A stretch of DNA of 64,000 nt from Vigna angularis (lineage: Eukaryota > Streptophyta > Magnoliopsida > Fabales > Fabaceae), in NCBI RefSeq assembly GCF_016808095.1, contig NC_068975.1, positions 1,860,001 through 1,924,000 of the forward strand, in the 5' to 3' direction. The notes below the pieces were generated by a model. The model was not told the DNA's origin and did no database searches. It saw only the letters and a list, made by a program, of their open reading frames with translations. The position numbers and the translations under genes were made by a program. Shown piece after piece: positions 12,801 to 51,000 of this stretch. Positions within the stretch are counted from its first letter, which is position 1. Every line of letters begins with the position of its first letter.

Positions 12801-13808
12801 ATTAATAATATATAATAATATAATTTGTTAAAAAGTTGTTTTTAGTAAAAATATTAATGTAACACTTATACAAATGATAAATTTTCATTATTTAATGTAA
12901 AGAAAGATAATATTGTTTAATTTAAAAATATTAAAATTAAATCAACTTAATAACATAAATATAAAAACTAAATTAAAATCAAAACAATAACATCTAAAAA
13001 TGTTCTACCATATAGCACTAACAATATCATATATCACCATAAAATTCTATCATGTAACACTAACAATATTACATATTACACCACGAACTACAAGTGACAA
13101 CAAAAACTTTTACAAAACAGAATAATTCTTTTAAAAATATTAAAAAATATCAAATGTTGATACATAACATACCATTAACTTTGTCAAAAATTAAGACAAT
13201 TAATTTTTTTTTCAAACAAAGACCAACCTAATACAAAGCCACCAAAGAAAAAACCATCTGACTAATTAAACCTAAAACACTTTCATTAAAAAGTTTATAA
13301 GGTATAACTAACACTACAGAAAATTAATAATATATAATAATATTTGTTAAAATGTTATTTTTAATAAAAATATTAATATAATATTTATACAAATAATAAA
13401 TTATCTTAATGTAGAGAAAGATAATATTGTTTTATTTAAAATAAATTAAAATTAAATTAAATCAATAAAACAAATATAGAAACTAAATTAAAATAAAAAC
13501 AATAATTGAAAGTTTTATACCACATAACATTAACAATATCACATATCACGTGACAACAAAATCTATTACAAAACGGAAAATAATTCTTTTAAAAATATTT
13601 AAAAAAATCAAATCTTGATCAGTAACATACCATTAATTTTTGTTCAAAAATTGAGACATTTTTTCAAAAATTTAAGATACAATTAAATTTTTTTAAAAAA
13701 CAAAGACCAACTTAATATACAACAACCAAAGTAAAAACTATCAAACTAATTAAACCTAAAACATTTTCATTAAAATGTTTAAAAGGTATAACTACCACAC
13801 ACTGCAGA
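12801..13808. repeat. Tandem duplication of an about 0.5 kb AT-rich unit
   Basis: Unit 1 (12801-13322) and unit 2 (13323 to about 13808) share the same order of landmarks. These are attaataatatataataata, agaaagataatattgttt, acattaacaatatcacatatcac-like text, gtgacaacaaaa, aaagaccaac, and aaaaggtataacta. Many substitutions and small indels separate them. No coding content. Confidence 0.75.
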
Positions 13809-15459
13809 ATATAAATTCTAAAAAGGCTACTACTTTAAAAATAGTACAACATATAATTTAAAAACTAAAATCCTTACTAATTCGTGTATGTAACCTCAGA
13901 TGTAGCTAGATTAATATCTTCAAAGTATTTATCTATATTAACGGCCGTCTGAAGCATTCCAAATTCACTAATTTTCACGGAGGGAAATCCAACTTCTTAC
14001 CAACTTACAAAAAATTACTATTGCTTTCAATTTTGGGGGTTAGTATTTAAAATATATTAAAACATATGGTAAGAAATAAGAACACAAACCAGTTTCTCAA
14101 TTGTGATTTACACGCAATTTAATTACAAGACATTTATTTAAAAGGTGGGAGGAAATGAGCTTCTAAACAGTAAACCAGGATGGGTGACAGCCAATCCAAC
14201 AGCCTCTGAAAACACCAAATTCGGTCTAGTGGTAGTCTCTTTTAACTCCACAACAATTTAAGAATGAATGAGTGAACAAATTTATTATCAGTGACCTCTG
14301 ACTACAAGAGTTAAATGAAATCACGAGTCATTGTTCGTGCTAGCCGTATTCCAGGATGAAAAGGTGTATGTTTGTTAAAGGGTTGAAGGGGGCTATGAAT
14401 AGTAGTTAGTACCATCATCCATAAACACACTGATAATATATCCAAACCAAACAACCTGTGTATCACTTTAAAATACAGATGCTTATTGGTAAGCACCTAA
14501 AACTACTTCTCATCAAGCTCCCCCAGACTATGTCCAAGAAACCAAATGCACACACTACTCCCTCCGGACTCAACCCTTATCTTTAACACTAAGCACCACC
14601 AAATATACAATTGAGGATAATTTAGAATAAAATACTTATTTATTATATTAAAATGACAATATTAAATGATTTAATATTCTTGAGAAGTTTGAAACTAGTT
14701 AACTTTCCTCATCTTTAAGTGCAGAGGTAGTAGTAGAATCACAGGATATAAAATGTCTAACTGGCAACGTCATGTAGTTTCTGAATTTACTCCCCTCTGT
14801 ACATGGAGAAATATCTACTTAACATCTTAAGGGTCTTAGAGAAAGAGTTCATATTAGTAATCTGCCTCTCTGATCCAATTTCCGAATGCTAACACGGAAT
14901 GCTGTCAAAAGAGCCCTTAAGAAGAGTGACATGAGAACCCTGTCGAGACTAATTAAGATCTATCTCATGGATATGATCTAACTAGGCATGTAACTAAATC
15001 ACAGCAACTGCATCAACTAGTTTTACCTGAAAAGGTTGAGTCAGCATCTTTAACGCTAGCCAAACACAACTTAAGGAAAGATGGAGAACAAGTACTCTTT
15101 CAAACAAATTTCTAGTATGACCTACAATAATACACAATCACACAACTCCACCACGATTCTAACTAAATATTATATCCAGAATTGTGACAGACTAACTTGC
15201 AAACATCTGAATATCACAAAAGCACAATGTGCCTATCTAAAATCGTATAGGCTGATAACTGATGGGAATCTCTAGATTGATGATGCTCGGGAAGCTCTAG
15301 ACTGATGTTGTTTCTACCTTCGGTTGTCTAAGCATTAGATAAACAGACATGCTAGTGGCTCTTCTGACTTCTAGATAGTGGTCACCTGCAGTAAGTGCTT
15401 TGTGTCTAGAAAATGCTTAAACCTGCATGCAAATTCTACTGCAAAGCTTAGTAATCAAA
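13809..15459. other. Interval downstream of the hnRNP gene; no gene seen
   Basis: The right part (about 15.2-15.46 kb) should be the 3' UTR of the minus-strand RNA-binding protein gene. The remainder is unremarkable AT-rich sequence. Confidence 0.5.
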
Positions 15460-25080: not shown

Positions 25081-25848
25081 GTCAAAACACATCCAAGACA
25101 TAATTCAAGTGTTCAAATCCCACATACATTAACTCTAGATCGCGAGAAAACATACCTAACACATAATGCATGCATTCAAATCTCATAAACCCTTATGAAC
25201 ATACCATAATGCATACATTACATCACTTCATCACTTGAATAATAAAAAACTCATCATTATGCATATTACAACCCAAACAAATCCAACATACTGCATATGA
25301 TCATCATACAACTTTTTACAACTTATATTTGTGTGGTAAAACCCCCAAACAACATATATTTGTCCTTCTTTAGCCTCAATACATATTATCAATGGATAAC
25401 CCAACAAAAACATACATACTTTCATTGAAAAAACCCAACACAAAAATGATATAAACCCTATCATCATGCATACACAAACCCTTGCCCAATAATAACAACA
25501 TATAATCATAGTCATCATCACATAAACATGTATTAAAACAAGGATTTCCATGCAAGAAAATCAAGAATGCATAGCATACAACAAACAAATGTAAGCTTCC
25601 CCATACCTTGGCCAATCCTAAGGCTTTATCTACAACTCCAAAACAACATCAATCTTTCCTTGTACTAAGATTTTTTGCAACTCTAACTCTTCTCTCCTAG
25701 AAAATGTCTCTCTTTCCCTATCTCTTTCTCTTTTTCGTTTTCAGATTTTGAGTAATATTATGCAACATTTTTTCCTCTTCCCTTTTTTTGTCTCTTTTCA
25801 CTTTATCTCTATCTTTTTGGTTAAAATAAGATCTCTCACTTAATCTCT

Positions 25849-26480
25849 GTCGCAACCGGAAAATCGCGACGGGACAACGATCCGTGAAAGAAAAAGAAAC
25901 GATTTTGAAAAAGAGATTTGGAGTCGCCACCATAGTTTATTCTGGAAAACTACGGAAAAACCATAAAATGATAAGGCATGGTCTATTAGAACCAGATTCT
26001 TGGTTCGAGAGTTGGTTACGTGTAGGGAAGGTATTAGCACCCTACAACGTCTGCCTTAAGGCAGTACCTTCAATTAAATATGCGAATATGATGTGGTTTT
26101 CAAAATGTTTAACTTTCCCTTAAAATAAAACTCGAAAGAAACAAACAATATTTTTTAGTTTTTTGGACCCGACAAGGATTGACCTTGCTCCTACGTATTC
26201 CCATTCAGAGTGAGAAATCAGGGTTCCGTAGTTCTTTTAGAAACTGCTTGAGAAGTTTGTTTGGAAATTTGTTTGAAAATTTGTTTTGAAATGATTTGGA
26301 TTTTTGGGGAAATGAACCTGACAAGGACTCGCCTTGTTCCTACGTATCTCCACTTTTGATGGAGAATCAAGGATAACGTAGTTCTGGCTAGCAATATTTG
26401 TTTGTTGTTTGAAATTGTTGACATTTTTTAGTTTTTGATGATTTTATATTTTTTTGGTATTTTTTGATATAATATTTAGA
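25849..26480 (+). repeat. Tat/Ogre-like retroelement terminal and leader sequence, copy 1
   Basis: It starts tgtcgcaaccggaaaatcg and continues through ggagtcgccacc. From about 26160 it shows two degenerate copies of gacaagg..cgccttg.tcctacgtat..cc. The same text occurs inverted at 28434-28890 and direct at 34014-34420. The 34 kb copy has a PBS-like TGGCGACTCCACTGGGG, the tRNA-Arg type known from Ogre/Tat elements. The family assignment is inferred. Confidence 0.5.
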
Positions 26481-26486
26481 TTTTTT

Positions 26487-26700
26487 GCGTAATGAGTACT
26501 AGGCTGATGCGTACAATCGCACGAGTACTCACACGGCTTTTTTCTTTATTTTTTTTATTGTTTTGCGTAATGAGCACTAGGCTGATGCGTACGATCGCAC
26601 GAGTACTCATACGGCTTTTTTTTGTTTATTTTATATTTTGGGTAATGAATACTAGGCTGATGCGTACGATCGCACAAGTACTCATACCGATATTTATTAC
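26487..26700 (+). repeat. Three tandem copies of an about 75 bp palindromic unit
   Basis: Each unit has gcgtaatgagtactaggctg followed by atgcgtacgatcgcacgagtactca, then a T-rich spacer. GAGTACT and AGTACTC form an inverted repeat around an inner TGCG..CGCA, so each copy can fold into a stem. The family recurs at 28434-28615 (inverted) and 34282-34410. Confidence 0.85.
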
Positions 26701-28433
26701 ATGTTTTTTTTTAGTTTTATATATAACAAACAAATCCACTAAAACAAAGGAGTGGGGGTTATCTTACAAGGGGGTTACATGCAATAAAAAACCAATAAAA
26801 GGAAAAAAGAAAGCATAAAAATAAAACAAGAGAAAAGCTCAACAAGATTAGGGATATAGAGATAAAAACTAGGAGTGCTGAGTGAAATTTAAGTTCCTTT
26901 GTTTTGGGCCAATACTCTCTTCTTCAATTTGTGTCTGTCAGGGTGTAAGGATGAAAAATGAGGGATGCATCCCGGAATGTATGTTAGGTCCAAATCCTTT
27001 TCACCCTCTTTTTTTGTTTGCACAGAGGGGGCTTAAGCCCAAATGAAAGGGGGTGTGAATATGAGTTGTGCCTCAACAGAAAGAAAGGTGGCAGACCACG
27101 CTAGGCCCAAAGCCTCTTTGTTCAGAAACCCATTAGGGGTTCAAATGAATCTTCCATTTTTGCCATTAACGTCCAAAACTCAGGGTCTCTTTCTTCTTCC
27201 TTCCACTGAAATCAACACTGCAAGTTGTGGCCCAAGGTGTTGCGAGCGCAGCCGTCCACCGTCAAGACCATCGTCGGCCGTCACTGAAGCTCTTTCCCTT
27301 TTCCTTTCTCGCGTGCGATTCTCTGGCACCAGCAATCCAGGGAGGGGTTCGCCTCCGCCTCACGACCTTACTCGCGCTGGTGCAACTCCCAGCCACCGTC
27401 GCCGCTGCTTCTTCGATTAAACCACCGCGCCACTGCTTCTCCGGTCCAGCCACCGCGCCACCACTGTGATCCCGAGCCAGGACGCCACCAGTTGCAGCGT
27501 TACTCTCCTCTTCCTCCGATTCGGCGCGAGCTCTCCCCTTCCCCGTCGAACACCGCAAAAGCGAGTCCAGACGTCTTGAACCAAGACACTGCCAGTGTCA
27601 TGAGCAAAAACAGCCACCGTTGATGAAAAGCTGGCCACTGTTGTCCTCGCCGGACTTCGGTTCCTGATTGGTGCCGCCAGCATCACTCTCCCTCTTCATC
27701 ATCTTTTTTCGTTTGATATTTTGTCTACTGGGAAACAGTAAGCTCGTGGTGTGCGCATATGAGTGTGAGGGGCTGGATTTGTTATGTTCAGTGGGTTGAT
27801 TGGATTATGAGAAAATGATGATTAAAGTTGAAAAATGGATTCGTTGGGTTACTTCTTATATTTCTTGCAGGTTTGGTGTGGATAAACAAAAATGCCTGTG
27901 AAGTGATGGCAGGGAGGTATGATTGCTCTCGGGTGTTTGATATGAAGATGATGATATTGGAGATGGTGTTTGCTTGGAGTGGATTCAAAATCCTGATAAG
28001 ATTAGATCTGAGGAAGAAACAAAAGGTAGTGTGAGGAAGTGTGTGAATATGGAGGATGGGTGTTTGGCCGTTTGTGAATGATGATGGTCATGGGGTGAGG
28101 GGGGTCGAGACTGGATTATGGTTGAAGGTAAAGGTGTTGGAGATCCAGTGTTGGACATCAAGGCCCGTTCAGAGATGAATGATGATGGGCATTCAGTTGA
28201 GGTAAGGTGAAGATGATGGTGTTTTACACGGTGTATGGAGCTGAAAGTCTATGGCGGAGTGAGAGCTACCGAAGCTTGGGCTGGGGAGGATGAGATGAAG
28301 GCTCCTCCAGGGTTTGGAGTTCGGCGATGGTATCTCTCGGCTGTAATCCCCCCTTGGTTGGTGAGAATCCCCATTCTTGTAGTGATGTAAAAGGACATTT
28401 TCAGAGTTACAAGATGGGACGCCGTGTGAGTGC
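26701..28433 (+). other. Retroelement-derived module with GC-rich cargo
   Basis: The lead-in (gggggttac, aggggttc) parallels 34420-34860, so this is the same repeat family. At about 27200-27690 it carries a GC-rich block unlike its AT-rich surroundings. Short open frames there (Arg/Pro/Ser-rich on plus, Ala/Gly-rich on minus) match nothing recognised. From 27770 to 28330 the plus strand is G- and T-rich with gatgatgg phrases, as at 35300-36060. The GC-rich block may be captured host DNA, but its source is unknown. Confidence 0.45.
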
Positions 28434-28615
28434 TCGTGCGATCGTACGCATCAGCCTAGTACTCATTACGCAAAACAAAAAGAGGAAAAAGCCGTGTGAG
28501 TGCTCGTGCGATCGTACGCATCAACCTAGTGCTCATTACGCAAAACAATAAGGAAAAAGCCGTGTGAGTGCTCGTGCAATCGTACGCATCAGCCTAGTAC
28601 TCATTACGCAAAAAA
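28434..28615 (-). repeat. Three tandem palindromic units (inverted copy)
   Basis: Three copies of gagtgctcgtgcgatcg followed by tacgcatcagcctagtactcattacgc, separated by short A-rich spacers. They form the outer end of the left arm. Confidence 0.85.
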
Positions 28616-28890
28616 TATAAATATTACAATAAAAATACAAAAAAAAATATAAAAATCTTCGAAAACTAAAAACATTCACTTTTTCAAAACAACAAACATA
28701 TGGCCTTGCCAGAACTACGTGATCCTTGATTCTCCACCAAAAGTGGAGATACGTAGGAGCAAGGCTAGACCTTGTCAGGCTCACTCTCCCCAGTGGAGTC
28801 GCCATCAGTCGCAACCGGAAAAATCGTGACGGGACGACGATCCGTAAAAATAAATAAAGCAATTTTGAAAAAAAGAGATTTGGAGTCGCC
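28615..28890 (-). repeat. Tat/Ogre-like LTR end, PBS and leader, copy 2 (inverted)
   Basis: Reverse complement of 34009 to about 34270. The PBS-like sequence appears as ccccagtggagtcgcca at about 28788-28804, next to gtcgcaaccgg. Confidence 0.6.
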
Positions 28891-30833
28891 ATATTCCTCT
28901 TATTTAGAGCCAACACACTTTCAACTAAACCACTTTGTCTTTTCTCGGGCATAGCAGTCCTCAACACAGGTTCCAAACATTGAGTTTCCGTCCAAATCTT
29001 CATCTGCTTATGCGGATTAATCTTCAGATTATCAATATCGATAGTCAAACCACCACTCGCAACCTCATACCCGTCAAAATATGTCGAAATAGTGGAATTG
29101 CCAGGAAACGCTAAATCATGCAGATCTTGGAGAGCTTGTATTTCACCAACATCGGGCACTGTCACGTTTACATCTGACATCACTATCTCTTCATATTTTG
29201 ACCCAAACCGTCATTTTGAACCTTCCTCGTGCAAGTGTTTCATCAATTTTTCTTCCTACACGAGCATCATATCAGAGATGTCACTATAAAGTTTGTCCTC
29301 AGCCTTTGTGTAGTATATCAAAGATCTCTTGTGTCTTGTAGTACCTACGACGATGTATGGGTTAGATTTTCTACCACCAGGATATATTTCGTTCTCAGTG
29401 GCTTTCAACCGAACCAATATCACACTATCGTAAGTTTTTCCTTGACTTTCATGGATTGTGTTCACTCCCCATTTCCCAGGACCCAGATATTTTTGCATAT
29501 CATCCTTCTCAACTTGAGTAAAGGTCAGATAATGAGCACCTTCAATCTTTGGAACACTGTAAATCGATGACATTCTAGTTCTCGGACCAAATACCTTCAT
29601 CAACTTAGTTACATCATTAGCACTCATCACAATGGAGTTCCCATAAAATTTCTTTTTTGTGAGATAAGACGCGACATCCAATGGTGAACGGTACGTTAAT
29701 CTCTTTTCAACAGTGTTAGAAATCTGTAATTCACTATATCTCAAGTCAATCGCTTCTACCCTATTCACAAAGGGAATTTGTTGTGAGTCACCCTGGCAAA
29801 TCACAATTCGAGCAGACAACATGTCTGCGCAAAAGTATACCATACCAGCATGAGCCATCAACGCCTCATCAAAATGCAGTACACCAGCTCTCGACTTAGA
29901 ATCATTCAGAAAGAAAGAGTCTACAGTTCTAACCCTCTTAAGTTGAGCTTCAGTCGCATTACGTTCTTTTTTAAATCTAGCTTTCAAATCCAACGCAGCT
30001 TCCTTACCCATTGTGAGCACATATTGTCTGTTCAAAGACGCTTCCTTGACAATATGCGTTGATTTACCACATCCAGGCACACCATCTATTAATGTAATAC
30101 ACGGCATGTGCCTCTGTTTCCTGTCATTCATCGCTGTCTTCAAAACTTCAAGTATTTCCAATTCATTCATCAGGTATGTATGATCACAAACCATAAACAT
30201 TGCATTCTCAGATTCAGGAAATCTTGGACAATCACTAATGATCTTACCCTCGTCATCCTTTTCCCATTGCAGTCTAACCAAAGTACCTCCCTGCTTATAA
30301 GTATCCTTGTCGAACTTAACAGCGTACATGTGACCGAGAATCTTAGGTTTCTTGTACAACCAACTACCTTTCCCTCTTGTAATCTTCAAAAAGGCTGCAT
30401 TCTTCGGGAAAGGTCCCTCCGAATCATGATACAAACCGTAAACATGTTCTCTGATAATATCCATCATTGTACTCTTGTATGAAATAATCTTACATTGCAG
30501 GTACCAGACGTACTCTTTCTTCGCTTTCGTAGCGAAAGTATCATCATCAGAAACAGATGGCCTTTCAGGTAGTTTTGCATAATTAACGCTTAAAGCGTCC
30601 AAACTCTCCTTTTCACACCTTAAATCTTCAGCCACAGCAGAGTCTTCATCCATCGAAGCCCACATTGGTCTCTTCTCTTCTTGGTCTTCATCATTACCAG
30701 ACGAACTACTTTCCCCAATTTCAAAGACAATATCGCAACTCTCAACAAGAATCTCTTTACCTTTTAAAATGCGTAAATTTTCAAACTCTTCTTGTGTAGG
30801 TGTTTTAGTTTCAGTAATTACAGACTCCACTTC
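28888..30833 (-). pseudogene. Endogenous virga-like replicase fragment, left arm copy (helicase + polymerase start)
   Basis: On the minus strand this copy repeats the helicase part of the right arm almost codon for codon; about six amino-acid differences are visible in about 520. A Gln codon has become a stop (TAG, 29256-29258), 14 codons before the natural TGA at 29211-29213. The polymerase start continues to about 28888. Here it reads through VESVLALNKRNMA, whereas the other copy has lost one base. It then runs into retroelement sequence. There is no viral start codon; the open frame above 30833 is antisense to the loop. Confidence 0.9.
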
Positions 30834-32065
30834 ATAAAGGTCAGAAAGTGAAGTATGGTTTCTTTGACGATCCAAATTGTGGATATACTCACGATTTGCG
30901 AAAGTTGAAAAAATATTTAACAAAGACGTTTGTGAAAACTGCCGACGGTGACGTGTTTTATTTGGAAGTGACAGATATAAGAGGTGATGTTGTTTTTATT
31001 TCTCTGACAGATGCAACAGAAGCTAGGGCGATGGGAGTGAAAATGGATGAATCTGTGAAATACTTGCCCTTAGACATGAAAAACAAAGTGGTTTTTCCTA
31101 TGTTTGATTTGGATAGTAGGTCTGGTGAAATATTTTTTGATGAAGAAATATTACCAAGAGATTTTGTGCACCGAGCGTTGGAGTATGTTTGTAGATTAAA
31201 AGATAATCAAATGACGGCTGAAACTGTCATGAGTTATCTTGCGTCTACTAATAATGCTGTAATAATTGGAGGTTCGACAAGAAAAGTGCAAGAGAAAGTC
31301 GATCCCAGGAAGTTGCCAGGTATTACCACGACACTTCTAGTTTATGCCGAGGTGCAAAAAAGGAAGCAGAAAGTGATAATCGGGAAACTGCGGGATAGAG
31401 TCAAAGAAGAAGTAGTCTTTGGTGATTTAGTGAAAACTATGGTAGCCAGGGTATTTGGAAAAGAGAGCTTATATCAACAGGCAGTAAAACAGTTTGCAAG
31501 TTGGCTTAAATTTATGCACGGTGACACAGTGGTAAAAATTGATGATTGTGCAATGTTTGCTGAAGTGAATGACACGGTAAAATTTTGGGCTGAGAGATTT
31601 GGAGATGAAGATTTCTCTTTGGATTTTAAAGCACTTGAAGAGAAAGCCGCTTTGTATGAAGAGTATGAAAGAGAGAGAAGAGATATGGTTAATTATGTGG
31701 TAAGTCAGAGGTTAAATGGAGCTGTGATAGATGCAGAAGAAAAGAAAGATGAGACAGAAACTAAGGAAGTTAACAAGGTGAAACAGTGGTTAGAAGAAAA
31801 TTCGGAGAAGGAAGTTTACCAAGGAAAGGTTCTGATTGATGCTGACAGGTTCAGTGAGTACTTGAAAGGAGACTTCTTTGGGCAAATTGATGAGAAAGAG
31901 AAAATTAAGGGGCGTTGGTTTAAAGAACTTAAGAAGAACTTTGAGAAATGCGTGAATAAAATCTGTGGCAACGATTATGTGTTTTTGAGCTATAATGATG
32001 TACAAGCTATTGCCACGGATGTGAAGGAGGAGGTGGATGTAGTTTCAGACCCGAAAGAGGTAACT
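30834..32065 (+). other. Loop between inverted repeat arms (virus-derived, present once)
   Basis: This 1232 bp spacer is viral too. From about 30841 it encodes the stretch between the methyltransferase-like domain and the helicase. It is continuous with the right-arm reading frame. It contains no intron-like signals that I can support. Confidence 0.85.
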
Positions 32066-33688
32066 GAAGTGGAGTCTGTAATTACTGAAACTGAAACACC
32101 TACACAAGAAGAGTTTGAAAATTTACGCATTTTAAAAGGTAAAGAGATTCTTGTTGAGAGTTGCGATATTGTCTTTGAAATTGGGGAAAGTAGTTCGTCT
32201 GGTAATGATGAAGACCAAGAAGAGAAGAGACCAACGTGGGCTTCGATGGATGAAGACTCTGCTGTGGCTGAAGATTTAAGGTGTGAAAAGGAGAGTTTGG
32301 ACGCTTTAAGCGTTAATTATGCAAAACTACCTGAAAGGCCGTCTGTTTCTGATGATGATACTTTCGCTACGAAAGCGAAGAAAGAGTACGTCTGGTACCT
32401 GCAATGTAAGATTATTTCATACAAGAGTACAATGATGGATATTATCAGAGAACATGTTTACGGTTTGTATCATGATTCGGAGGGACCTTTCCCGAAGAAT
32501 GCAGCCTTTTTGAAGATTACAAGAGGGAAAGGTAGTTGGTTGTACAAGAAACCTAAGATTCTCGGTCACATGTACGCTGTTAAGTTCGACAAGGATACTT
32601 ATAAGCAGGGAGGTACTTTGGTTAGACTGCAATGGGAAAAGGATGACGAGGGTAAGATCATTAGTGATTGTCCAAGATTTCCTGAATCTGAGAATGCAAT
32701 GTTTATGGTTTGTGATCATACATACCTGATGAATGAATTGGAAATACTTGAAGTTTTGAAGACAGCGATGAATGACAGGAAACAGAGGCACATGCCGTGT
32801 ATTACATTAATAGATGGTGTGCCTGGATGTGGTAAATCAACGCATATTGTCAAGGAAGCGTCTTTGAACAGACAATATGTGCTCACAATGGGTAAGGAAG
32901 CTGCGTTGGATTTGAAAGCTAGATTTAAAAAAGAACGTAATGCGACTGAAGCTCAACTTAAGAGGGTTAGAACTGTAGACTCTTTCTTTCTGAATGATTC
33001 TAAGTCGAGAGCTGGTGTACTGCATTTTGATGAGGCGTTGATGGCTCATGCTGGTATGGTATACTTTTGCGCAGACATGTTGTCTGCTCGAAGTGTGATT
33101 TGCCAGGGTGACTCACAACAAATTCCCTTTGTGAATAGGGTAGAAGCGATTGACTTGAGATATAGTGAATTACAGATTTCTAACACTGTTGAAAAGAGAT
33201 TAACGTACCGTTCACCATTGGATGTCGCGTCTTATCTCACAAAAAAGAAATTTTATGGGAACTCCATTGTGATGAGTGCTAATGATGTAACTAAGTCGAT
33301 GAAGGTATTTGGTCCGAGAACTGGAATGTCATCGATTTACAGTGTTCCAAAGATTGAAGGTGCTCATTATCTGACCTTTACTCAAGTTGAGAAGGATGAT
33401 ATGCAAAAATATCTGGGTCCTGGGAAATGGGGAGTGAACACAATCCATGAAAGTCAAGGAAAAACTTACGATAGTGTGATATTGGTTCGGTTGAAAGCCA
33501 CTGAGAACGAAATTTATCCTAGTGGTAGAAAATCTAACCCATACATCGTCGTAGGTACTACAAGACACAAGAGATCTTTGATATACTACACAAAGGCTGA
33601 GGACAAACTTTATAGTGACATCTCTGATATGATGCTCGTGCAGGAAGAAAAATTGATGAAACACTTGCACGAGGAAGGTTCAAAATGA
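30848..33688 (+). CDS. Endogenous viral element: virga-like replicase, linker and SF1 helicase
   Basis: An unbroken frame of 946 codons encodes part of an alphavirus-like replicase of the Virgaviridae type. In the virus this protein copies and caps RNA in the cytoplasm. Helicase motifs in order: Walker A GVPGCGKST (about codons 657-665), FDEA (about 727-730), QGDSQQIPF (about 753-761), LTYRSP (about 785), VNTIHESQGKTYDS (about 863-876) and VGTTRHK (about 902-908). Codons 1-400 are the linker after the methyltransferase, whose core is missing. The frame opens with GTG and no viral start; the first ATG is near 31031. It ends in TGA followed by CGG, and the same frame continues into polymerase. 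An old virus copy, not a host gene; intactness suggests recent integration or retained function. Confidence 0.9.
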   Translation: MKYGFFDDPNCGYTHDLRKLKKYLTKTFVKTADGDVFYLEVTDIRGDVVFISLTDATEARAMGVKMDESVKYLPLDMKNKVVFPMFDLDSRSGEIFFDEEILPRDFVHRALEYVCRLKDNQMTAETVMSYLASTNNAVIIGGSTRKVQEKVDPRKLPGITTTLLVYAEVQKRKQKVIIGKLRDRVKEEVVFGDLVKTMVARVFGKESLYQQAVKQFASWLKFMHGDTVVKIDDCAMFAEVNDTVKFWAERFGDEDFSLDFKALEEKAALYEEYERERRDMVNYVVSQRLNGAVIDAEEKKDETETKEVNKVKQWLEENSEKEVYQGKVLIDADRFSEYLKGDFFGQIDEKEKIKGRWFKELKKNFEKCVNKICGNDYVFLSYNDVQAIATDVKEEVDVVSDPKEVTEVESVITETETPTQEEFENLRILKGKEILVESCDIVFEIGESSSSGNDEDQEEKRPTWASMDEDSAVAEDLRCEKESLDALSVNYAKLPERPSVSDDDTFATKAKKEYVWYLQCKIISYKSTMMDIIREHVYGLYHDSEGPFPKNAAFLKITRGKGSWLYKKPKILGHMYAVKFDKDTYKQGGTLVRLQWEKDDEGKIISDCPRFPESENAMFMVCDHTYLMNELEILEVLKTAMNDRKQRHMPCITLIDGVPGCGKSTHIVKEASLNRQYVLTMGKEAALDLKARFKKERNATEAQLKRVRTVDSFFLNDSKSRAGVLHFDEALMAHAGMVYFCADMLSARSVICQGDSQQIPFVNRVEAIDLRYSELQISNTVEKRLTYRSPLDVASYLTKKKFYGNSIVMSANDVTKSMKVFGPRTGMSSIYSVPKIEGAHYLTFTQVEKDDMQKYLGPGKWGVNTIHESQGKTYDSVILVRLKATENEIYPSGRKSNPYIVVGTTRHKRSLIYYTKAEDKLYSDISDMMLVQEEKLMKHLHEEGSK

Positions 33689-33691
33689 CGG
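33686..33691 (+). promoter_or_regulatory. Leaky-stop context UGA-CGG
   Basis: TGA is followed directly by CGG, and the downstream frame stays open into polymerase sequence. UGA-CGG is an established read-through context in several rod-shaped plant RNA viruses, where it separates the helicase product from the polymerase extension. Here it is a fossil of that switch. Confidence 0.7.
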
Positions 33692-34008
33692 TTTGGGTCA
33701 AAATATGAAGAGATAGTGATGTCAGATGTAAACGTGACAATGCTCGATGTTGGTGAAATACAAGCTCTCCAAGATCTGCATGATTTAGCGTTTCCTGGCA
33801 ATTCCACTATTTCGACATATTTTGACGGGTATGAGGTTGCGACTGGTGGTTTGACTATTTATATTGATAATCTGAAGATTAATCCGCATAAGCAGATGAA
33901 GATTTGGACGGAAACTCAATGTTTGGAACCTGTGTTGAGGACTGCTATGCCCGAGAAAAGACAAAGTGGTTTAGTTGAAAGTGTGTGGCTCTAAATAAGA
34001 GGAATATG
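33689..34008 (+). pseudogene. Endogenous viral element: start of RNA polymerase domain, right arm
   Basis: In frame after the leaky stop are about 90 codons typical of the polymerase N-terminus, including LQDLHDLAFPGNS and TAMPEKRQSGLVES. One base is missing near 33985 compared with the left arm, so the frame ends at VWL-stop (33992-33994). At about 34008 viral sequence gives way to retroelement sequence. The catalytic core of the polymerase, with its GDD box, is absent. Confidence 0.85.
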
Positions 34009-34420
34009 GCGCCTCCAAATCTCTTTTTTTCAAAATTGCTTTATTTATTTTTACGGATCGTCGTCCCGTCGCGATTTTTCCGGTTGCGACAGATGGCGAC
34101 TCCACTGGGGAGAGTGAGCCTGACAAGGTCTAGCCTTGCTCCTACGTATCTCCACTTTTGGTGGAGAATCAAGGATCACGTAGTTCTGGCAAGGCCATAT
34201 GTTTGTTGTTTTGAAAAAGTGAATGTTTTTAGTTTTCGAAGATTTTTATATTTTTTTTTGTATTTTTTTCCTTTTATTGTTTTGCGTAATGAGTACTAGG
34301 CTGATGCGTACGATCGCACGAGCACTCACACGGCTTTTTCCTTTTATTTTATTTTGGGCAATAAGTAATAGGCTGATGCGTACGATCGCAAGAGTACTCA
34401 TACCGATATTTATCATTACA
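34009..34420 (+). repeat. Tat/Ogre-like LTR end, PBS and leader, copy 3
   Basis: Sequence from ctccaaatctc to ccggttgcgaca (ends about 34091) looks like the last about 80 bp of an LTR. Then come two bases and TGGCGACTCCACTGGGG (34094-34110), a tRNA-Arg-type PBS known from Ogre/Tat elements, followed by gacaaggtctagccttgctcctacg and two palindromic units. The same arrangement sits inverted at 28434-28890. Confidence 0.6.
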
Positions 34421-36900
34421 TGCTTTTTAAGTTTTATATGTTTTTTTTATTATTCTTTTTTATTCATTTTTTTGTAATTTTTATGTAAAACGACAAAACA
34501 AGTTTAACAGATATAAACAAAGCAAAGGGATGTGAATTACTGTACATGGGGGTTACATATCGTAAAAACTAAATAATAAAAATAAAGAAACAAACACAAG
34601 AAAATAAAGGTCCAACAGCGACAGGGTGTAGACGGGAACGGGGTACCAGCAAAAAAAAAACCTTCGTTTTTTTATCGTTTTTAACATGGGTCTGAGCCCA
34701 AGGGAAAGGACAGGGGGGTGCAGGTGAAATATGGGGGGTGCATCTCGAAATGTGTGCTGAGGCCTACTCTTTTTATTTGTTTTTTTTGTTTTATTAGTGA
34801 GAGCTGCAGGCCAAGGCCCTTCCCTTTTTCGGTTCATGAGACCCCTAGGGGTTCCTCCCACTTTTACCAAAAGAAGCAAAGGTGTTCAAACGGCCACCGC
34901 GGGGAGGGGCTTCTACCCGGACCAAACATTGCCGGCAACGCCAAACACCACCAGAACCGCCGCTGCTACCTCCCCTTCCAGTCTCGGCGTCGGTATCGGA
35001 GAAGAAACAGTGGTCGTTGAGAAAGTTGATGGGCGAGGAGGCCTCGACAGAGTGTACGGACTCGAAGAAGGGCGCGACAGGGAGACGTTGGTGACGGCTG
35101 GCGAGGGGGTCGGCGGAGTGGATGTCACGGTAGCAGGCGAGGCAAAGCGCGGTGGTGTCGGTCTTGCAGGTGACGTGCGCGGGCGTCCGCTCGCATAACT
35201 CGCAGAGCATAACACGTGTGTGGCGCGAGGCGAGCTTGTTGGGGCGGCAGTGCAAACTGATGGTGGCGGTGTTGGCGCTGACGAAGTGGAAATCGGGTGG
35301 GCGAATAAAGATGAAGATGATGGATGTTGGTGGTGAGTCTGGTTAGGAAACTTACCAGTATGGAAGGTGAGTTAATGGATGATGAGAGTGAGGATACGGG
35401 AAATGGGAGTGGAAAAAAGGAAATGGTTTGTTCTGGTTACGGGTGTTGGGGCTGAAAAGGAAGAAAAGAAAGGATAAAGATGATAGGTGTTGGCCGTGAG
35501 TGTGGATATAGCTATGGTGACTGGTGCATATGGATGTTTGGCCGTGTGTGAATGATAATGGTCGTAGTATCTGGGGAGGTGCAGTAGGGGATGGATAATG
35601 ATGGGTGTTCCCGATGGTTGTGGGATAAGGGGTTAGGATGAAGATGATGGGTATTGGCTGTCCGTGAGGTGTTGGTAGTGGTTATGGGTATTGAGGCTCA
35701 AGAGTTGGGGCTAGGCCGTGGGGAATGAAGATTGATGGAAAGGTGTTCCTAATAACCGTGGGCCGTGATATCAAGTATTGGAGGTGGTATAAGGATGGAG
35801 GTATGGAATTTCCAGTGAATACATGTGAGTAGTGTGAGGGGTGGAGAATTGAATTTTCAGAGAAGCTTGGAAGTGAGGGGAGTGTGGTTGGGTCACGATG
35901 GAGGCAGGATGATGACGGGAAATATGGTGGAGCAGAGGTTTATGAAGAGGAAAGGGATGAAGATCATGAGTTGTTTGGAGGTTTTGGTTCAGAGATGAAT
36001 ATGAAGAGGTGATGATGCTGGAGGTGGACAGAGGCGCGGGGGGCATAGCTTTATTATCTATTAATGAAAGTGGGTGTGGGAAGGGTGATGATGATATTCA
36101 GTAACAACAGACATCTACAAATATCGACAACACTAGGAATGTTTTTAACAGCAAACACATGCAAACTTAACTCATGCAAATTTAGCAATAACATAACAGA
36201 GAGACAACGTTCAAGGGCAGCGTAACCAACATTATCAAGGACAAGTAACCAACTCAGTAGGATATGGAATGCAAGACATCAGTTACCTCTTGAAGATCCG
36301 TTTGCTGTTGTTAACCCGTGTGTCTGATGGATTCTTTCCTTGTGGCTGACTTTCTCTTTTTTAGTAACCCCCTCTTCCTCCCCTCCTTTGGCTGAGTAGT
36401 TTTCTTTTAGTAAGGTGTCCTCTCCTCCTTTTCTGAGTAGTTCTCTTTTCGTAACCCCCTGCTGATGAGAAAACCAGAGTCTTTCGCCGTGTGCTGTTCT
36501 TCCCCCCTGCCCTTCTTTCATTATGCATTCACCTTTATTATTGGGAGCCAGGGTGTTGAAGGCGAGTGGGAGCAAAGGTGGGTGGGAGGCAGGGTGTTGA
36601 AGGTGAGTGGGAAGCAAAGGTGAGTGATGATGAGAAGTGGAGATAGTGGAGGTTGATACGGTGGGGAATAGTGGAATATTATGGGAATCATTAGTGGAAG
36701 TTGGATGGTGGTGGAATATTGTGGGAATAATTTGTTAGAATAAAAAGAGGGTTGGTGAAGTGGGAGCGGATAGAAGTGGATCTGATGGAAGATTGTAGTA
36801 GTTGTTAAAGTGGGGAAACATTGAGACGAGCGGCAGGGGGGACGACCAGGACGAGCGGTAGAGATTGTAAAAAGCCGAACGACTAAGTAAGTTTTGGTTT
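34421..36900 (+). other. Retroelement-derived module carrying a captured gene fragment
   Basis: It parallels 26701-28433: the same gggggttacat and aggggttcctcc landmarks, then a GC-rich cargo block (34880-35290), then a G-rich, C-poor plus strand to about 36060. Around 36270-36300 is an LTR-like motif, ttacctcttgaagatcc. At 36545-36625 there is a short tandem repeat of about 40 bp around cagggtgttgaagg. No retroelement pol genes are present. Confidence 0.45.
34845..35300 (-). pseudogene. CONSTANS-like B-box zinc finger fragment
   Basis: The minus strand encodes the end of one B-box ([10 protein letters not shown]) and a complete-looking second B-box. The second has [20 protein letters not shown], then [18 protein letters not shown], a [11 protein letters not shown] tail and a short Ser/Gly-rich segment. 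This is the tandem B-box layout of CONSTANS-like transcription factors. The first box is degraded, the CCT domain and start are missing, and both flanks are repeat sequence. It therefore looks like a host gene piece captured by a retroelement, lying antisense to it. Confidence 0.85.
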
Positions 36901-44760: not shown

Positions 44761-45391
44761 TTAGCATGTTGTTCAACATATTGCAAAAACTCCGAAACAC
44801 CCTTTTCATATTTTTCACTGATGTGACGTTCATTCATCCAGCTTCGATCCATACTATGTTCGTAACGTACTTCATCAGTTTCAGTTTTTTAACTCTCACA
44901 AGGTTAGGCCCTACCCATTCAGAAAAATTATTTTTCATAAATTGCTAAGACACATGCAAAGAAGTCTACATCATAAATTTGATAAGATTTCCGCAGCATT
45001 TCGCATTGGTCTCCGAAATACACGAAATGAAAGTAGTCAAGGATGACTACAATCAAATATGCATTAGGAGAACAACACAAATACTGAACCGAAATTTTAT
45101 TAATCTTATCTATAAACTCCAACGTACATGTTATAGCAAATTATGAAAATTAATTTTTCCAAACTCTCCAATCGGACAATTCAAAATTTAATACAAACGA
45201 TTAAAAGATTAATCGTTTGTGTTAAATTTCAAACGGGAACTAAGTTTCAGTCAATGATTTCATACTTATAACCTAACATGCCAATTATAATAACACAGCT
45301 ATCACATGCATATTCAAAAGCCAATAACACATGCATACCTAAAAGCCAATAACACATGCATACCTAAACGCCAAAAATATGCATACGAAAA
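44761..45391. other. CACTA interior remnant
   Basis: No credible gene. The last 90 bases hold three copies of the aaagccaataacacatgcata phrase that reappears right of the gypsy insertion. Confidence 0.5.
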
Positions 45392-46282
45392 TGATTACAA
45401 ACTCCTAGCTAAGGGTCCAATCACAAGAAGCATGGCCAAACAAATTCAAGAAGGATTAAAATCATTTCCAAAAGAAGGAGCTAAACTCTTATTTACTTGG
45501 GCTATCATGAAGTATTTCTAGACCTTGTATTAAGGGTCAAGTAGTATAGGGTATATTTTTAGGCCTTGTATAATGGGCCAAGTATTGTATGGTTTGTAAT
45601 ATTAGCTTAAAAGAGTGTGTCCCACCATGGGACATGATGGCCACATGGCAAGCTCTTAGTGAAGACACTTCTTAAAAAGGAAGTGGCCATGTGTCACTTT
45701 CCAAGTGGAGAAACTCTTCCTAAAGTGGATTGCCACATGTCACTCTAAGAGTGGAAAGCTTTTGCAAAAGTGGATTGTCACATGGCACTTTAAGAGTGGA
45801 GGAACTTTGCAAAAGTGGATTACCACATGAGTGGAGAAGACTTTACAAAAGTGGATTGCCACATGGCACTCTAAGAGTGGAGAAACTTTGTAAAAGAGGA
45901 TTGTCACATGTCTCTTTAAGAGTGGATAGTTTTTAGGGTTTCTTGTCTACTTTGGAGACACCTTTCTCTATAAATAGAAGGGTCTCCTTCCTTGTAAAAT
46001 CACTTGATGAATTTGAATATTATTATGCCAAAATGTGTGCAAACATATCTTGTCTCAAGTCAAGGCTAGAGCATCCCATGAGGTCCCTCTAACCACCCTT
46101 CTCTAGAGTTGGCCCAACCTCTCCGGAGATCCATCAAACACCTCTATCCTACCACAAATACTCACCAAAAACCTCACCAAAATTGTGAGCCCACCACCAT
46201 ATCCATCGCTTCCGCACAAATTCCACCTCCATAGCTTCATCTTCGTGCTTTGGCCCAACCTAGCTCGAGGAGGACGCTATCA
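45392..46282 (+). repeat. 5' LTR of gypsy element
   Basis: Begins TGATTACAAACTCC and ends ctatca. Contains a run of about five 45-57 bp repeats around aagtggattgccacatg (45715-45935) and a TATA box, ctataaatagaag, at about 45968. Confidence 0.95.
45715..45935 (+). repeat. LTR U3 tandem repeats
   Basis: About five imperfect copies of aagtggattgccacatg..actctaagagtgga lie just upstream of the TATA box, a typical place for enhancer-like U3 repeats. The same array sits in the 3' LTR at 52915-53125. Confidence 0.8.
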
Positions 46283-46284
46283 TT

Positions 46285-46297
46285 TGGTATCAAGAGC
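46285..46297 (+). promoter_or_regulatory. Primer binding site
   Basis: TGGTATCAAGAGC follows the LTR end after two bases. It is the tRNA-Met type with one extra base compared with TGGTATCAGAGC. Confidence 0.8.
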
Positions 46298-48008
46298 TTT
46301 GGGTCTACAAGAGCTAAGTATCTTGGTCCTTTACCTATCTTTGTGTATTTCTTGTTGTTATTGTGTTGTTCTTTATTGTCTTCCATTGTTTACATCCATA
46401 TATGTTATTTTTATGGTTCTAGTTTGTTCTTTTGCGGAACCATTCGGTTTTTACCACTAAGTTTCCATATACATGTGTTGTGGCGTGCTTTTATATTTTT
46501 TTTTTGAGTCTTTCTTCATATATTTGGTTATGTTTTAATGTCATTTTTGGGTTATTTTTTATTTTTAATTCCATCCATGTTGTCTAGAGTCATGTGTAGT
46601 CATTTTTATGTCATTTTCTCTTAGTTCGGGCTTTGCAAAAATCATAAAAAAATATGTCCCATTGGGATTTCGAAATTACAGTATATACATCCATTTGAGT
46701 GCTTTTTTTATTTCATATTTGAGTTCATGCTTGTCATTAGATCATTGTCAAGTTCTTAGAGTTAAGTTTCTCTTGTGTTTCTTTGAGTTTCATGCTCTAT
46801 TTTTGATTCTAGTAAGATTTCTTCCATTTTTTTTCTTTGAGTCATGAACTTTGAGCTACCCAAACAAATTGTCCAGATCTAATTTGTGTTGAAAAACAAA
46901 AGTGTAGACAAAAGTAAAAAGCCAAAGTAAAAAAAAAAAAAGTAAAAGTACAAGCAAAAGCAAAAGTGAAAAAAAAAAGTTACTTTGACTTGAGACTTTG
47001 ACATGAGACTTTACCATGACACTTGGAGATGATACTTGGACATAATACCTTGACATGACACTTGGACATGACCCTTGGATATGAGACTTGGACATGACAC
47101 TTTTGACAAAATATTGTCTCTGCCTATAGTGCACCATTAGCTCAGTGTTTGTAAAGATAAGAAGTAATAATTCTCTATTCTAATTGTTTTTTTTGTTTTG
47201 TTCATCTATTCTAGTGCCTTTCTTTAGGTAATTCTTTTGAGTGCCTAGCCTTCGGTTTTTTAAGCTTTATTTTCTTGATTGTCTTGTTCATTACTCTCTG
47301 TTTTGTCTCAACATAACTCCTTTTGAAGAGCTATTGTTCAAATTGGCCCTTGATTTGCATTCTCTTTGGATTCCTACCTTTCGGATTTGGTTTGATATTT
47401 GGTGTAGGATATTCTTTGGAGGAAAAACGAAATTGGACATAGTATATCGGGTGATCGGAGACCTCTTTGGACCTTGAAACCTTGAGGAAGAGACAAGAAG
47501 AAAAGGAGTGAAACACTTTAGAGAGGAACACACATTATTTATTTGTATTACGCATTTTTGAGTTGTAAAATTGTATTGCTTTTGGATTTGTAACTCATAA
47601 CCTTGTTAGGTATCTTGGGGTAGTCTGTGATACTCAATCCCATATCCTAACAAAGACTTGTAAACCATATTGAAAACGTTTTTAGTTGGTTAAAGTTTGA
47701 AGGTTCCAAAGTGCCTTCTAACTTTACCATTAGGCCGCATAGTCTAGTTTAATTGTTGTCTTTAACTGCTTATAATTTATTGTGTGTCTACTTGTGTATC
47801 AAACCTAATTCCATTTGAGAAGTTTGGTGCAAGAGAACTTGAGGTAAACTTTGGCTAGGAAAGGCTTGGATTTTAAGTGATCCTTAGTGATTCTCCTCTC
47901 TTTCCTGGAAGTGAACTTGAGATTATTTTGCCTCCTTAAATCTCTAAAGGAATTTACTTTTGAAATACAAGTTTGTGTGTGCATTACATATTTTGAATTT
48001 TTTTAAGA
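46298..48008 (+). other. Gypsy 5' leader
   Basis: 1.7 kb of T-rich untranslated leader between PBS and gag-pol start. A run of acttggacatgac-type repeats lies at 46985-47100. No gene seen. Confidence 0.6.
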
Positions 48009-51000
48009 ATGTCTAAGGAACCTTCTTACCAAATTGATAGTGATTATAGTGAAGAGGCCCAACCAAATTTAGAACAAATGGCCAAGGAACTAAAATCACT
48101 AAAACTTTGGCAAAAGCAAGAATCCATTTTGAAAGAAAAAGAAAGAGTTGAAAGAGAACAATATCTTGAAACCTTAGAAGAAGAACTTAGAGTTCTAGCC
48201 CAAAAACAAGAAAAGGTCCAAGAAGAGATAAAGAAAAGTAGGAGTAGGAGTCACTCAAGGAGAAGTTCAAAAACTCCCACAGAAAACACATACCCTGAAC
48301 AAGATAGTAGGACTGCTGCACAATTCTACCAACATCCTCCACCTAGAAGGTATAGAAGGGAGAGTGAACAACCACCAAGAGAGATTAGGATAGACCTTCC
48401 TCATTTCCATGGGAAAGAAGATGTTGAGGCATACCTAGATTGGGAAATGAAAGTAGAACAACTTTTTGAGTGTCATCAAATAATAGAGGAAAGGAAAGTT
48501 TCCCTAGCCACCTTAAGCTTTCAAGGGAATGCCATGTATTGGTGGACTGCCCTAGTGAGAGAAAGAAGACTCTCCAATTCCCCTCAAGTCCAATATTGGA
48601 ATGACTTGAAGAGTGCTCTAAGAAGAAGACACATACCTTCCTACTACCATAGAGAGCTTATGGATAAACTCCAAAGGCTCCAACAAAGAACCATGAGTGT
48701 GGAAGAGTATAGGCAAAAGATGGAACTCTACATGATGAGGGCGGGAATTAGGGAAGAAGAAGGAACCACAATTTCTAGATTTCTAAGTGGTCTTAATCTT
48801 GATATTAGAGATAGAGTGGAATTGTTGCCCTATCAAGGTCTTAATGATTTGGTACAAATTTGCATAAAGGTAGAGCAACAACATTTGAGAAAAGGTTTGA
48901 AAATTGACCACTCAAACTCATATGTTAAGAAAGACTACAAGAGGGAGGGAAAACAAGTGAGAAGAGAGGAAACCCCTAGGAAATTTGAGAAAGAGAAAGA
49001 GAAGCCCAATCAAGGATCATCATCATCCATGCGCACTAGTGAAATTAAATGTTTTAAGTGTCAAGGTAGAGGTCATATTGCATCACAATGTCCCACCAAA
49101 AGGATCATAATCTTAAGGGGTGTTGACTCATATAGTAGTGAAGAAGAAGAAGAGAAAGGTGCAAGTGAGGAGGAGAATGAAGGAGAAGATTCCTACCCTT
49201 GTGATGGAGATCTCCTCATGATGAGAAGAGTTCTCAAGAATCAACCCAGTCCCCAAGTCTTAACACAAAGAGAAAACATCTTTCATACAAGATGTAGAGT
49301 TTCAAACAAAACATGTTCTCTCATTGTAGATAGTGGCTCATGTTGTAATTGTTGTAGCACTAGGTTGGTGGAAAAGTTAGGTCTCACCATCAAACCTCAT
49401 CCCAAACCTTACAAACTTCAATGGCTAAATGAAGGAGAGGATTTGAATGTGAACCAACAAGTGGAGGTCAAGCTCTCAATAGGGAACTATGAAGATAAAG
49501 TACTTTGTGACATAATTCCTATGGAAGCTTGCCACATTCTATTAGGAAGACCATGGCAATTTGACAAAAAAACTATACACAATGGTCATACTAATGAGAT
49601 TACTCTCCACCATAAGGAAAAGAAGTTTATTCTTCATCCCCTACCACCTTCTAAAGTATTTGAGGATCAATTACAAATGAAGAAACTAAGGAATGAAGAG
49701 AGAAATGAAGAGAGCATGCATAAGGATTTAAGGGAGCAAATTCCCAACTCTTGCATTCATGAAGAAGGGGAAAGTAGTGCTCTTACCAAGGTCACTCAAA
49801 AGGAGAAAAATTTGTCTAAGAAAACATTGAAGAAAACTCTCCTTTGTGAGCAACCTTCCTATCTCCTTTTTTGTAAAGGAGCACTTTCATGCATTACTGC
49901 AAATCTAGAACCCAAGTGTCTATCTCCTTTGGATAAACTTTTGAAAGAATTTAGTGATGTGTTTCCCAAAGAAGATCCCAAAGATCTTCCACCAATCAGG
50001 GGTATAGAACATCAAATAGATTTTGTTCTTGGGGCAAGTTTACCAAATAGGCCAGCCTATAGAACCAATCCTCAAGAAACTAAGGAGATTGAAACTCAAG
50101 TTCAAGAATTATTAGACAAAGGTTGGGTTCAAAAGAGTTTGAGTCCATGTGCTGTGCCCGTGTTGTTAGTTCCTAAGAAAGATGGAAAATGGAGAATGTG
50201 TTGTGATTGTAGGGCTATCAACAACATCACCATTAAGTATAGGCACCCAATTCCTAGGCTTGATGACATGTTAGATGAGTTGCATGGATCCATGATATTT
50301 TCCAAAATAAATCTTAAAAGTGGTTATCACCAAATAAGAATAAGAGAGGGTGATGAGTGGAAAACTGCATTTAAGACTAAATTTGGTCTATATGAATGGT
50401 TAGTAATGCCATTTGGCTTAACTAATGCACCTAGCACCTTCATGAGATTAATGAACCATGTCCTTAGGGATTGCATTGGAAAATTTGTGGTTGTGTACTT
50501 TGATGACATCCTAGTATATAGCAAGAGTCTTCATGATCATTTAGGACATTTGCAAATTGTTCTCTCCACCTTGAGGGACAATCATCTTTTTGCAAACAAA
50601 GAAAAATGCACATTTTGTGAAGATAGTGTGGTATTTCTAGGATTCATAGTGAACAAGCATGGTGTGCATGTTGATCCCACCAAAGTCCAAGCCATTCAAG
50701 ATTGGCCAACTCCCCAAAATATAGGAGAAGTTAGGAGTTTTCATGGTCTAGCATCTTTCTATAGGAGATTTGTCCCTAACTTCTCAAGTATAGCTTCACC
50801 TCTCAATGAGCTGGTAAAAAAAGATGTGAAATTTGTGTGGGGAGAGAAACAAGAGTTGGCTTTCAAGCAACTCAAAGAAAAACTTACCAATGCACCCATT
50901 TTATCTCTTCCAAACTTTTCAAAAACTTTTGAGATAGAATGTGATGCAAGTGGTGTAGGAATAGGTGGAGTTTTGTTACAAGAAGGACACCCCATTGCCT

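What the first reader, a model, noticed from the sequence alone, without database searches (positions are those of the whole stretch)
28434..34345. Virus replicase fossil arranged as a 2.3 kb inverted repeat: a ready-made long hairpin RNA locus
Two near-identical arms of virga-like helicase and polymerase sequence face each other around a 1.23 kb viral loop. Any transcript crossing the locus would fold into a very long duplex carrying virus sequence, the ideal substrate for Dicer-like enzymes. Such a locus could act as heritable RNA-based immunity or as a source of 21-24 nt siRNAs. The inverted structure is seen directly; the immune role is a hypothesis.
Basis: partly seen in the sequence, partly recalled or inferred. 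Interest (0 to 1): 0.95.

Follow-up and report, generated by a model that had tools for sequence, protein, structure and literature searches.

The report
Virus-derived inverted repeat in adzuki bean
A piece of the replication gene of a plant virus related to the pomoviruses sits in the adzuki bean genome as two mirror-image copies, so any RNA made from it could fold into a long hairpin of the kind plants cut into virus-silencing small RNAs; whether the plant uses it that way is not yet shown.

Summary
Window 28486-30834 and 32065-34411 are 98% identical inverted arms around a 1,230-nt loop. About 1.94 kb of each arm and the loop derive from the replicase of a pomovirus-like RNA virus: methyltransferase in the loop, helicase and a polymerase stub in the arms. 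The outer ~0.4 kb of each arm is the end of a large LTR retrotransposon with an 18-nt primer-binding site. The host is adzuki bean by match to annotated proteins. Gene models of another assembly run from each arm into its own flank and keep arm-specific residues, so an assembly artefact is unlikely. Viral arms differ by 14 substitutions in 1,922 columns, in a neutral-looking pattern. Profile searches found two more fossils: a non-inverted pomovirus-like one (C5) and, 1.26 Mb away, a cucumovirus 2a fragment that is also an inverted repeat (546-nt arms, 100%). A close parallel, a cucumber mosaic virus RNA1 inverted repeat in soybean that yields siRNAs, is published (read through reviews). So this is a new member of a known kind. 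siRNA production is plausible by analogy; protection against a virus is untested.

The parts
28893..30834 (-). left arm, viral part: pomovirus-like helicase, TGA at 29211-29213 and RdRp N-terminal stub, reverse orientation; TAG nonsense at 29256-29258
   Evidence: stop-to-stop frames 29256-30995 and 28536-29210
30835..32064 (+). loop: C-terminal viral methyltransferase (PF01660 positions 182-308, PF08456) and linker; viral protein similarity begins within 5 bases of the junction, no host spacer
32065..34005 (+). right arm, viral part: linker, superfamily 1 helicase (PF01443), in-frame TGA CGG at 33686-33691, RdRp stub (1-nt deletion near 33985 relative to the left arm)
   Evidence: the 3' limit of viral sequence (about 34005) is placed by eye
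30818..33688 (+). 956-codon open frame from just before the junction through loop and right arm to the TGA
34006..34093 (+). 3' end of a large LTR (...GGTTGCGACA) plus 2-nt spacer, fused to viral sequence
34094..34111 (+). 18-nt retrotransposon primer-binding site; the joint to inverted LTR sequence falls at its end, sharing GGGA
   Evidence: L007/L020 and L008 have a site with one mismatch each at the same place
34108..34482 (-). LTR interior in opposite orientation with 68-78 bp tandem repeats; a weaker LTR match at 36113-36376 (69%) has the same orientation
28805..28892 (-). left-arm copy of the LTR 3' end and spacer
28787..28804 (-). left-arm copy of the 18-nt primer-binding site
28421..28790 (+). 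left-arm copy of the LTR interior and tandem repeats (94-95% to the five genomic copies L004-L008); left end of the palindrome
25846..26722 (-). further LTR piece left of the palindrome, orientation opposite to 28421-28790

Best explanation
A non-retroviral endogenous viral element (EVE). (1) Shown: a replicase fragment of a pomovirus-like RNA virus is fused to the 3' end of an LTR and the primer-binding site of an Ogre-like retrotransposon in adzuki bean. (2) Inferred: the viral RNA was copied into DNA by retrotransposon reverse transcriptase jumping templates; a joint exactly at the end of the 18-nt primer-binding site is what plus-strand strong-stop DNA would leave. (3) Shown: this unit, retrotransposon part included, exists as an inverted duplication. 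Inferred: a snap-back or template switch at the DNA stage made it, after fusion with the LTR. (4) Inferred: a transcript across it folds into a ~2.3-kb hairpin that Dicer-like enzymes cut to 22/21/24-nt siRNAs, which chiefly silence and methylate the locus itself and could cleave only very closely related viral RNA. My odds: EVE and inverted repeat real 0.97; hairpin siRNAs in some tissue 0.6; protection against any present-day virus 0.1-0.15.
For: Viral identity: Pfam methyltransferase, helicase and RdRP_2; Beet virus Q, Beet soil-borne virus and other virga replicases; helicase tree joins it with the C5 fossil (100/100) inside a pomovirus-like group whose deeper forks are weak; in-frame TGA CGG before the polymerase stub. 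Retrotransposon joint. Both arms real: models P0005 (loop, parts of right arm, right flank) and P0006 (left arm, left flank) with arm-specific residues. Duplex potential. Analogy for siRNAs: soybean CMV RNA1 inverted repeat with 22-nt, then 21- and 24-nt siRNAs, just downstream of a Copia LTR promoter (review PMC6256188, passages); tomato caulimovirid inverted repeats and soybean DCL2-dependent siRNAs (review PMC10377300, passages).
Against: No RNA or small-RNA data were available. No plant promoter was identified; the bacterial-type scan does not bear on it. The outer, LTR-derived part is less alike than the viral part (about 398 of 431 against 1,907 of 1,922 columns), and its tandem repeats blur the outer edge. 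P0006 carries the right-arm residue at one of six informative places (codon 33521): polymorphism, gene conversion or error. No sign of selection since duplication.
Confidence: 0.62

Rival explanations
1. Inert fossil: the inverted repeat is real but silent, an accident of retrotransposon capture and later rearrangement, with no siRNA role beyond background methylation of the LTR.
For: Neutral-looking arm differences (random changes in the helicase frame would give 28% synonymous, 69% replacement, 3% stop); 9 of 13 polarised changes are C>T or G>A, as in methylated DNA; flanked by a very common LTR family.
Against: Soybean and tomato inverted-repeat EVEs of the same form are siRNA sources (from reviews); a second virus inverted repeat lies on the same chromosome.
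Confidence: 0.3
2. Assembly artefact: one viral copy assembled twice in opposite directions.
For: Palindromes are known assembly errors; no raw reads were available.
Against: 14 substitutions and 1 gap between the viral arms; another assembly (contig 31,747,250 bases against 38,116,500 here) has two consecutively numbered models that reach the two different flanks with arm-specific residues.
Confidence: 0.03
3. The inversion arose in the viral RNA (copy-back defective RNA) before integration.
For: Head-to-head join of viral sequence with no host spacer at 30834/30835.
Against: The mirror symmetry continues through the LTR end, primer-binding site and LTR interior, so duplication followed fusion with the retrotransposon.
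Confidence: 0.04
4. The open frame is kept for a host-used viral protein.
For: 956-codon open frame with a full-length helicase profile match.
Against: The left copy has a nonsense codon and arm differences show no purifying selection; so few changes have accrued (about 0.3-0.6 million years with recalled rates) that an open frame is expected anyway.
Confidence: 0.03

Closest known systems
Cucumber mosaic virus RNA1 inverted-repeat EVE of soybean (Da Fonseca et al. 2016, Plant Sci 246:62; original not held; passages of reviews PMC6256188, PMC5669357, PMC8623320, PMC10377300; phaseoloid kinship of the hosts recalled)
   Same: Plus-strand RNA virus replicase segment, inverted repeat, next to an LTR retrotransposon, in a related legume
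   Different: Different virus family; soybean arms near 3.4 kb around a 0.5-kb plant spacer, here ~1.94 kb viral arms around a viral loop with LTR ends inside the mirror; siRNAs shown in soybean, untested here
Tomato endogenous caulimovirid inverted repeats (Valli et al. 2023; not held, passage of review PMC10377300)
   Same: Rearranged virus DNA in inverted repeat; heritable RNA-based immunity proposed in its title
   Different: Pararetrovirus source; 22-nt siRNAs and target cleavage reported there
Non-retroviral RNA virus sequences of plants (Chiba et al. 2011, PMC3136472, passages)
   Same: RNA virus sequence in nuclear DNA; retrotransposon or pararetrovirus reverse transcriptase suspected
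   Different: Its text has no hit for 'inverted', 'tobamo' or 'beny'; here a pomovirus-like source and a visible LTR/primer-site joint
C5 pomovirus-like EVE of the same genome (G000:C5:33146768-33156940)
   Same: Same viral lineage, sister in the helicase tree
   Different: Not inverted, interrupted by ~6.6 kb of other DNA; judged a separate capture (dN/dS 0.05-0.08 between the two)

Membership tests
Endogenous pomovirus-like element (Virgaviridae) | Methyltransferase-helicase-RdRp replicase order with best matches to pomoviruses | tested here: met
   RdRp only a stub; forks around the wider pomovirus group are weak (84/84, 91/81). Which named viruses are pomoviruses is recalled
Endogenous pomovirus-like element (Virgaviridae) | Leaky stop between helicase and polymerase | tested here: inconclusive
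   TGA CGG in frame; that this is a read-through context of several virgavirus genera is recalled
Endogenous pomovirus-like element (Virgaviridae) | Integrated in a chromosome with host flanks | tested here: met
Endogenous pomovirus-like element (Virgaviridae) | Other pomovirus segments (coat, triple gene block) present | not tested
   PF00721 search did not complete; the helicase family, to which TGB1 belongs (recalled), gave 4 matches, all at the replicase loci
Inverted-repeat EVE siRNA locus (soybean CMV RNA1 type) | Near-identical inverted viral arms of kilobase length with a shorter spacer | tested here: met
Inverted-repeat EVE siRNA locus (soybean CMV RNA1 type) | Neighbouring LTR promoter directing transcription through the repeat | tested here: inconclusive
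   LTR pieces on both sides, the right one with its sense strand pointing into the repeat; promoter and start site not located
Inverted-repeat EVE siRNA locus (soybean CMV RNA1 type) | 21/22/24-nt siRNAs from the arms | not testable with these tools
   no small-RNA reads available
LTR-retrotransposon-mediated RNA virus capture | Direct joint of viral sequence to LTR end and primer-binding site | tested here: met
   the process itself is inferred
LTR-retrotransposon-mediated RNA virus capture | Target-site duplication around the inserted cDNA | not tested
   outer borders lie in LTR arrays; not searched

The most novel reading that the evidence does not exclude
Phaseoloid legumes have repeatedly turned RNA-virus sequence into long genomic inverted repeats: a pomovirus-like replicase and a cucumovirus 2a fragment on one adzuki chromosome (found here), and CMV RNA1 in soybean (published). 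Either reverse-transcription snap-back makes such hairpins readily, or plants that keep them gain siRNA memory of past viruses, a hairpin analogue of the insect piRNA-EVE system.
Probability: 0.15. Interest if true: 0.9.

Novelty: new member of a known kind. Interest (0 to 1): 0.6.

Why it matters
It gives a second legume species with RNA-virus inverted repeats, from a pomovirus-like source that I did not find as a plant EVE in the held papers (mostly listings seen), with a readable retrotransposon joint. Of three loci found in this genome by viral helicase, methyltransferase and RdRp profiles, two are inverted repeats. That makes a long-standing question testable: are such hairpins made by chance or kept as immunity?

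Tried and rejected
Assembly artefact and RNA-stage copy-back were considered and disfavoured (see rivals). IMG/VR scans for relatives of the replicase frame and of the second locus's polymerase piece gave none. Bacterial promoter/terminator scan, tRNA scan and Rfam (none at gathering score) added nothing. Instead I scanned 118 kb already held, which is too little, and chosen around viral and LTR loci, to give a rate. Never answered: coat protein searches (PF00721; PF00760), the LTR-end search, the right-flank search and further copies of the second locus. Da Fonseca 2016, Valli 2023 and Jia 2020 are not held and are cited through passages of reviews. No held paper holds both 'Vigna angularis' and 'endogenous viral' (0 papers).
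Full report
Observation. Repeat search finds inverted arms 28913-30834 / 32065-33986 (1,922 nt, 99%) with 1,230 nt between, extended outward by a 293-nt pair. BLAST joins them into 28486-30834 / 32065-34411, 98.0% over 2,353 columns. In the viral part 14 of 1,922 columns differ by substitution (10 transitions) and one by a gap. The longest perfect run is 751 bp.

What is in it. On the + strand a 956-codon frame (30818-33688) holds the C-terminal part of the methyltransferase (PF01660 182-308, PF08456) in the loop and the superfamily 1 helicase (PF01443, E 2e-45) in the right arm. A separate frame of the left arm matches only positions 3-62 of RdRP_2. The helicase frame stops at TGA CGG, and the polymerase stub follows in the same frame. 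With the helicase half as query 40 proteins were found; the only ones named as plant are three from Vigna angularis (P0005, P0006, P0018), and several hits are unnamed. A helicase tree of 26 rows, with P0018 standing for the C5 fossil, joins the two at 100/100, near Beet virus Q, BSBV and PMTV; the forks that define the wider group are weak.

Host and reality. The window is G000:C6:1860001-1924000 of a 448-Mb, 33-contig genome. Vigna angularis gene models LR48_Vigan09g006300 (P0006) and 006400 (P0005), on a 31.7-Mb contig and so from a different assembly than this 38.1-Mb one, cover the locus. P0006 runs from the left arm into the left flank (28476-28270 and 27753-27265). P0005 runs from the loop and parts of the right arm into the right flank (34797-35333). 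Of residues that tell the arms apart, P0005 has the right-arm type at 5 of 5 informative places and P0006 the left-arm type at 5 of 6; the exception is codon 33521. Two assemblies therefore agree on two distinct arms. The numbering suggests, but does not prove, that the models lie side by side and face each other.

Retrotransposon joint. Outside the viral part both arms hold the last ~86 nt of an LTR, a 2-nt spacer and an 18-nt primer-binding site (34094-34111), then LTR interior in the opposite orientation, beginning at 34108 with GGGA shared by both sides. The genomic copies at L007/L020 and L008 have a site with one mismatch each right after their LTR end and then go on differently; L004 and L006 have no such site there. 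A C4 element shows two LTR copies about 21 kb apart that align over 4,091 columns at 98% plus a further 471. The name Ogre-like is recalled and was not tested by protein domains. That the joint falls at the end of the primer-binding site is what plus-strand strong-stop DNA would leave (retrotransposon biology, recalled), so I infer capture of viral RNA by retrotransposon reverse transcriptase. Because the mirror continues through this joint, the inverted duplication came after the fusion.

Age and selection. With recalled rates of 6.1e-9, 7e-9 and 1.3e-8 per site and year the arms date to about 0.60, 0.52 and 0.28 million years; gene conversion would make this too young. Of the 14 substitutions 3 are synonymous, 10 replace a residue and 1 makes a stop. 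Random changes would give 28%, 69% and 3% in the helicase frame; 5 of the 14 lie in the stub beyond that frame. With C5 as outgroup 6 fall on the left arm, 7 on the right and 1 is unclear; 9 of the 13 are C>T or G>A. The outgroup is distant, so polarity is weak. The window and C5 elements differ with dN/dS 0.047, 0.080 and 0.071 in three segments, with high synonymous divergence. They diverged under constraint, as viruses do, so I take them as separate captures.

Other virus fossils in this genome. A DNA search with the viral part gave 5 matches: two in the window and three pieces on C5 (33146609-33156127). Protein comparison extends that copy from the start of the replicase to the helicase end (33156940-33146768), with ~6.6 kb of other DNA inside and stop codons in helicase and methyltransferase. 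RdRP_2 found C6:625193-626576 besides the window. That locus is an inverted repeat with 546-nt arms, 100% identical, 269 nt between, and a 43-bp direct repeat at 5142-5184 and 6744-6786 of L028. Its polymerase piece is 84% identical to a partial cucumber mosaic virus 2a protein (150 of 179 residues). PF01660 found the window and C5 only; PF00680 found nothing. So 2 of 3 loci found by these four profiles are inverted. Other virus families were not searched. No background rate was measured: the scan covered 118 kb of held, non-random DNA.

How it likely works. A transcript across the locus could fold into a ~2.3-kb duplex. Reviews describe the same form in soybean: CMV RNA1 as a near-complete 3.4-kb inverted repeat downstream of a Copia LTR promoter, giving 22-nt, then 21- and 24-nt siRNAs (PMC6256188, passages); in tomato, caulimovirid inverted repeats with 22-nt siRNAs able to direct transcript degradation; and in soybean, DCL2-dependent 22-nt siRNAs from inverted repeats (PMC10377300, passages). 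By analogy I expect hairpin siRNAs if the right-hand LTR, whose sense strand points into the repeat, or another promoter is active. Only 8 of 3,153 21-mers are shared with the C5 relative, so any defence would be narrow. Immunity is possible and unproven.

Novelty. The kind (an RNA-virus EVE as a hairpin locus in a legume) is published. The pomovirus-like source, the primer-binding-site joint and a second, cucumovirus inverted repeat on the same chromosome did not appear in the listings or passages I saw. I saw passages of seven papers (searches cover eight: PMC12548735, PMC6520822, PMC5452135, PMC3136472, PMC6256188, PMC8623320, PMC5669357, PMC10377300) and listings only of the rest. Subscription journals are mostly not held, so this is weak evidence of absence.

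Noticed in passing
L028:5185-6545 (G000:C6:625185-626545): Cucumovirus 2a-like polymerase fragment arranged as an inverted repeat with 546-nt, 100% identical arms and a 269-nt loop; a 43-bp direct repeat at 5142-5184 and 6744-6786; a second small inverted repeat (85-nt arms) within 6665-6880.
   Followed up: partly
L014/L015 (G000:C5:33146768-33156940): Second pomovirus-like replicase fossil, not inverted, interrupted by about 6.6 kb; matches Vigna angularis model LR48_Vigan08g146600.
   Followed up: partly
window 45391-53476: Repeat pair 99.7% identical (892 nt) around a 1,572-codon frame with gag, RT, RNase H and integrase domains: a young LTR retrotransposon.
   Followed up: partly
window 11000-14000: GC falls to 18% with self-complementary sequence at 12362-12988, about 70%.
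   Followed up: no
window 54013-54226: 115-bp unit repeated 1.8 times, with inverted self-similarity (82%); may be a transposon end.
   Followed up: no
G000:C6:37077383-37100619: Five copies of the LTR tandem segment at regular ~5.72-kb spacing.
   Followed up: no
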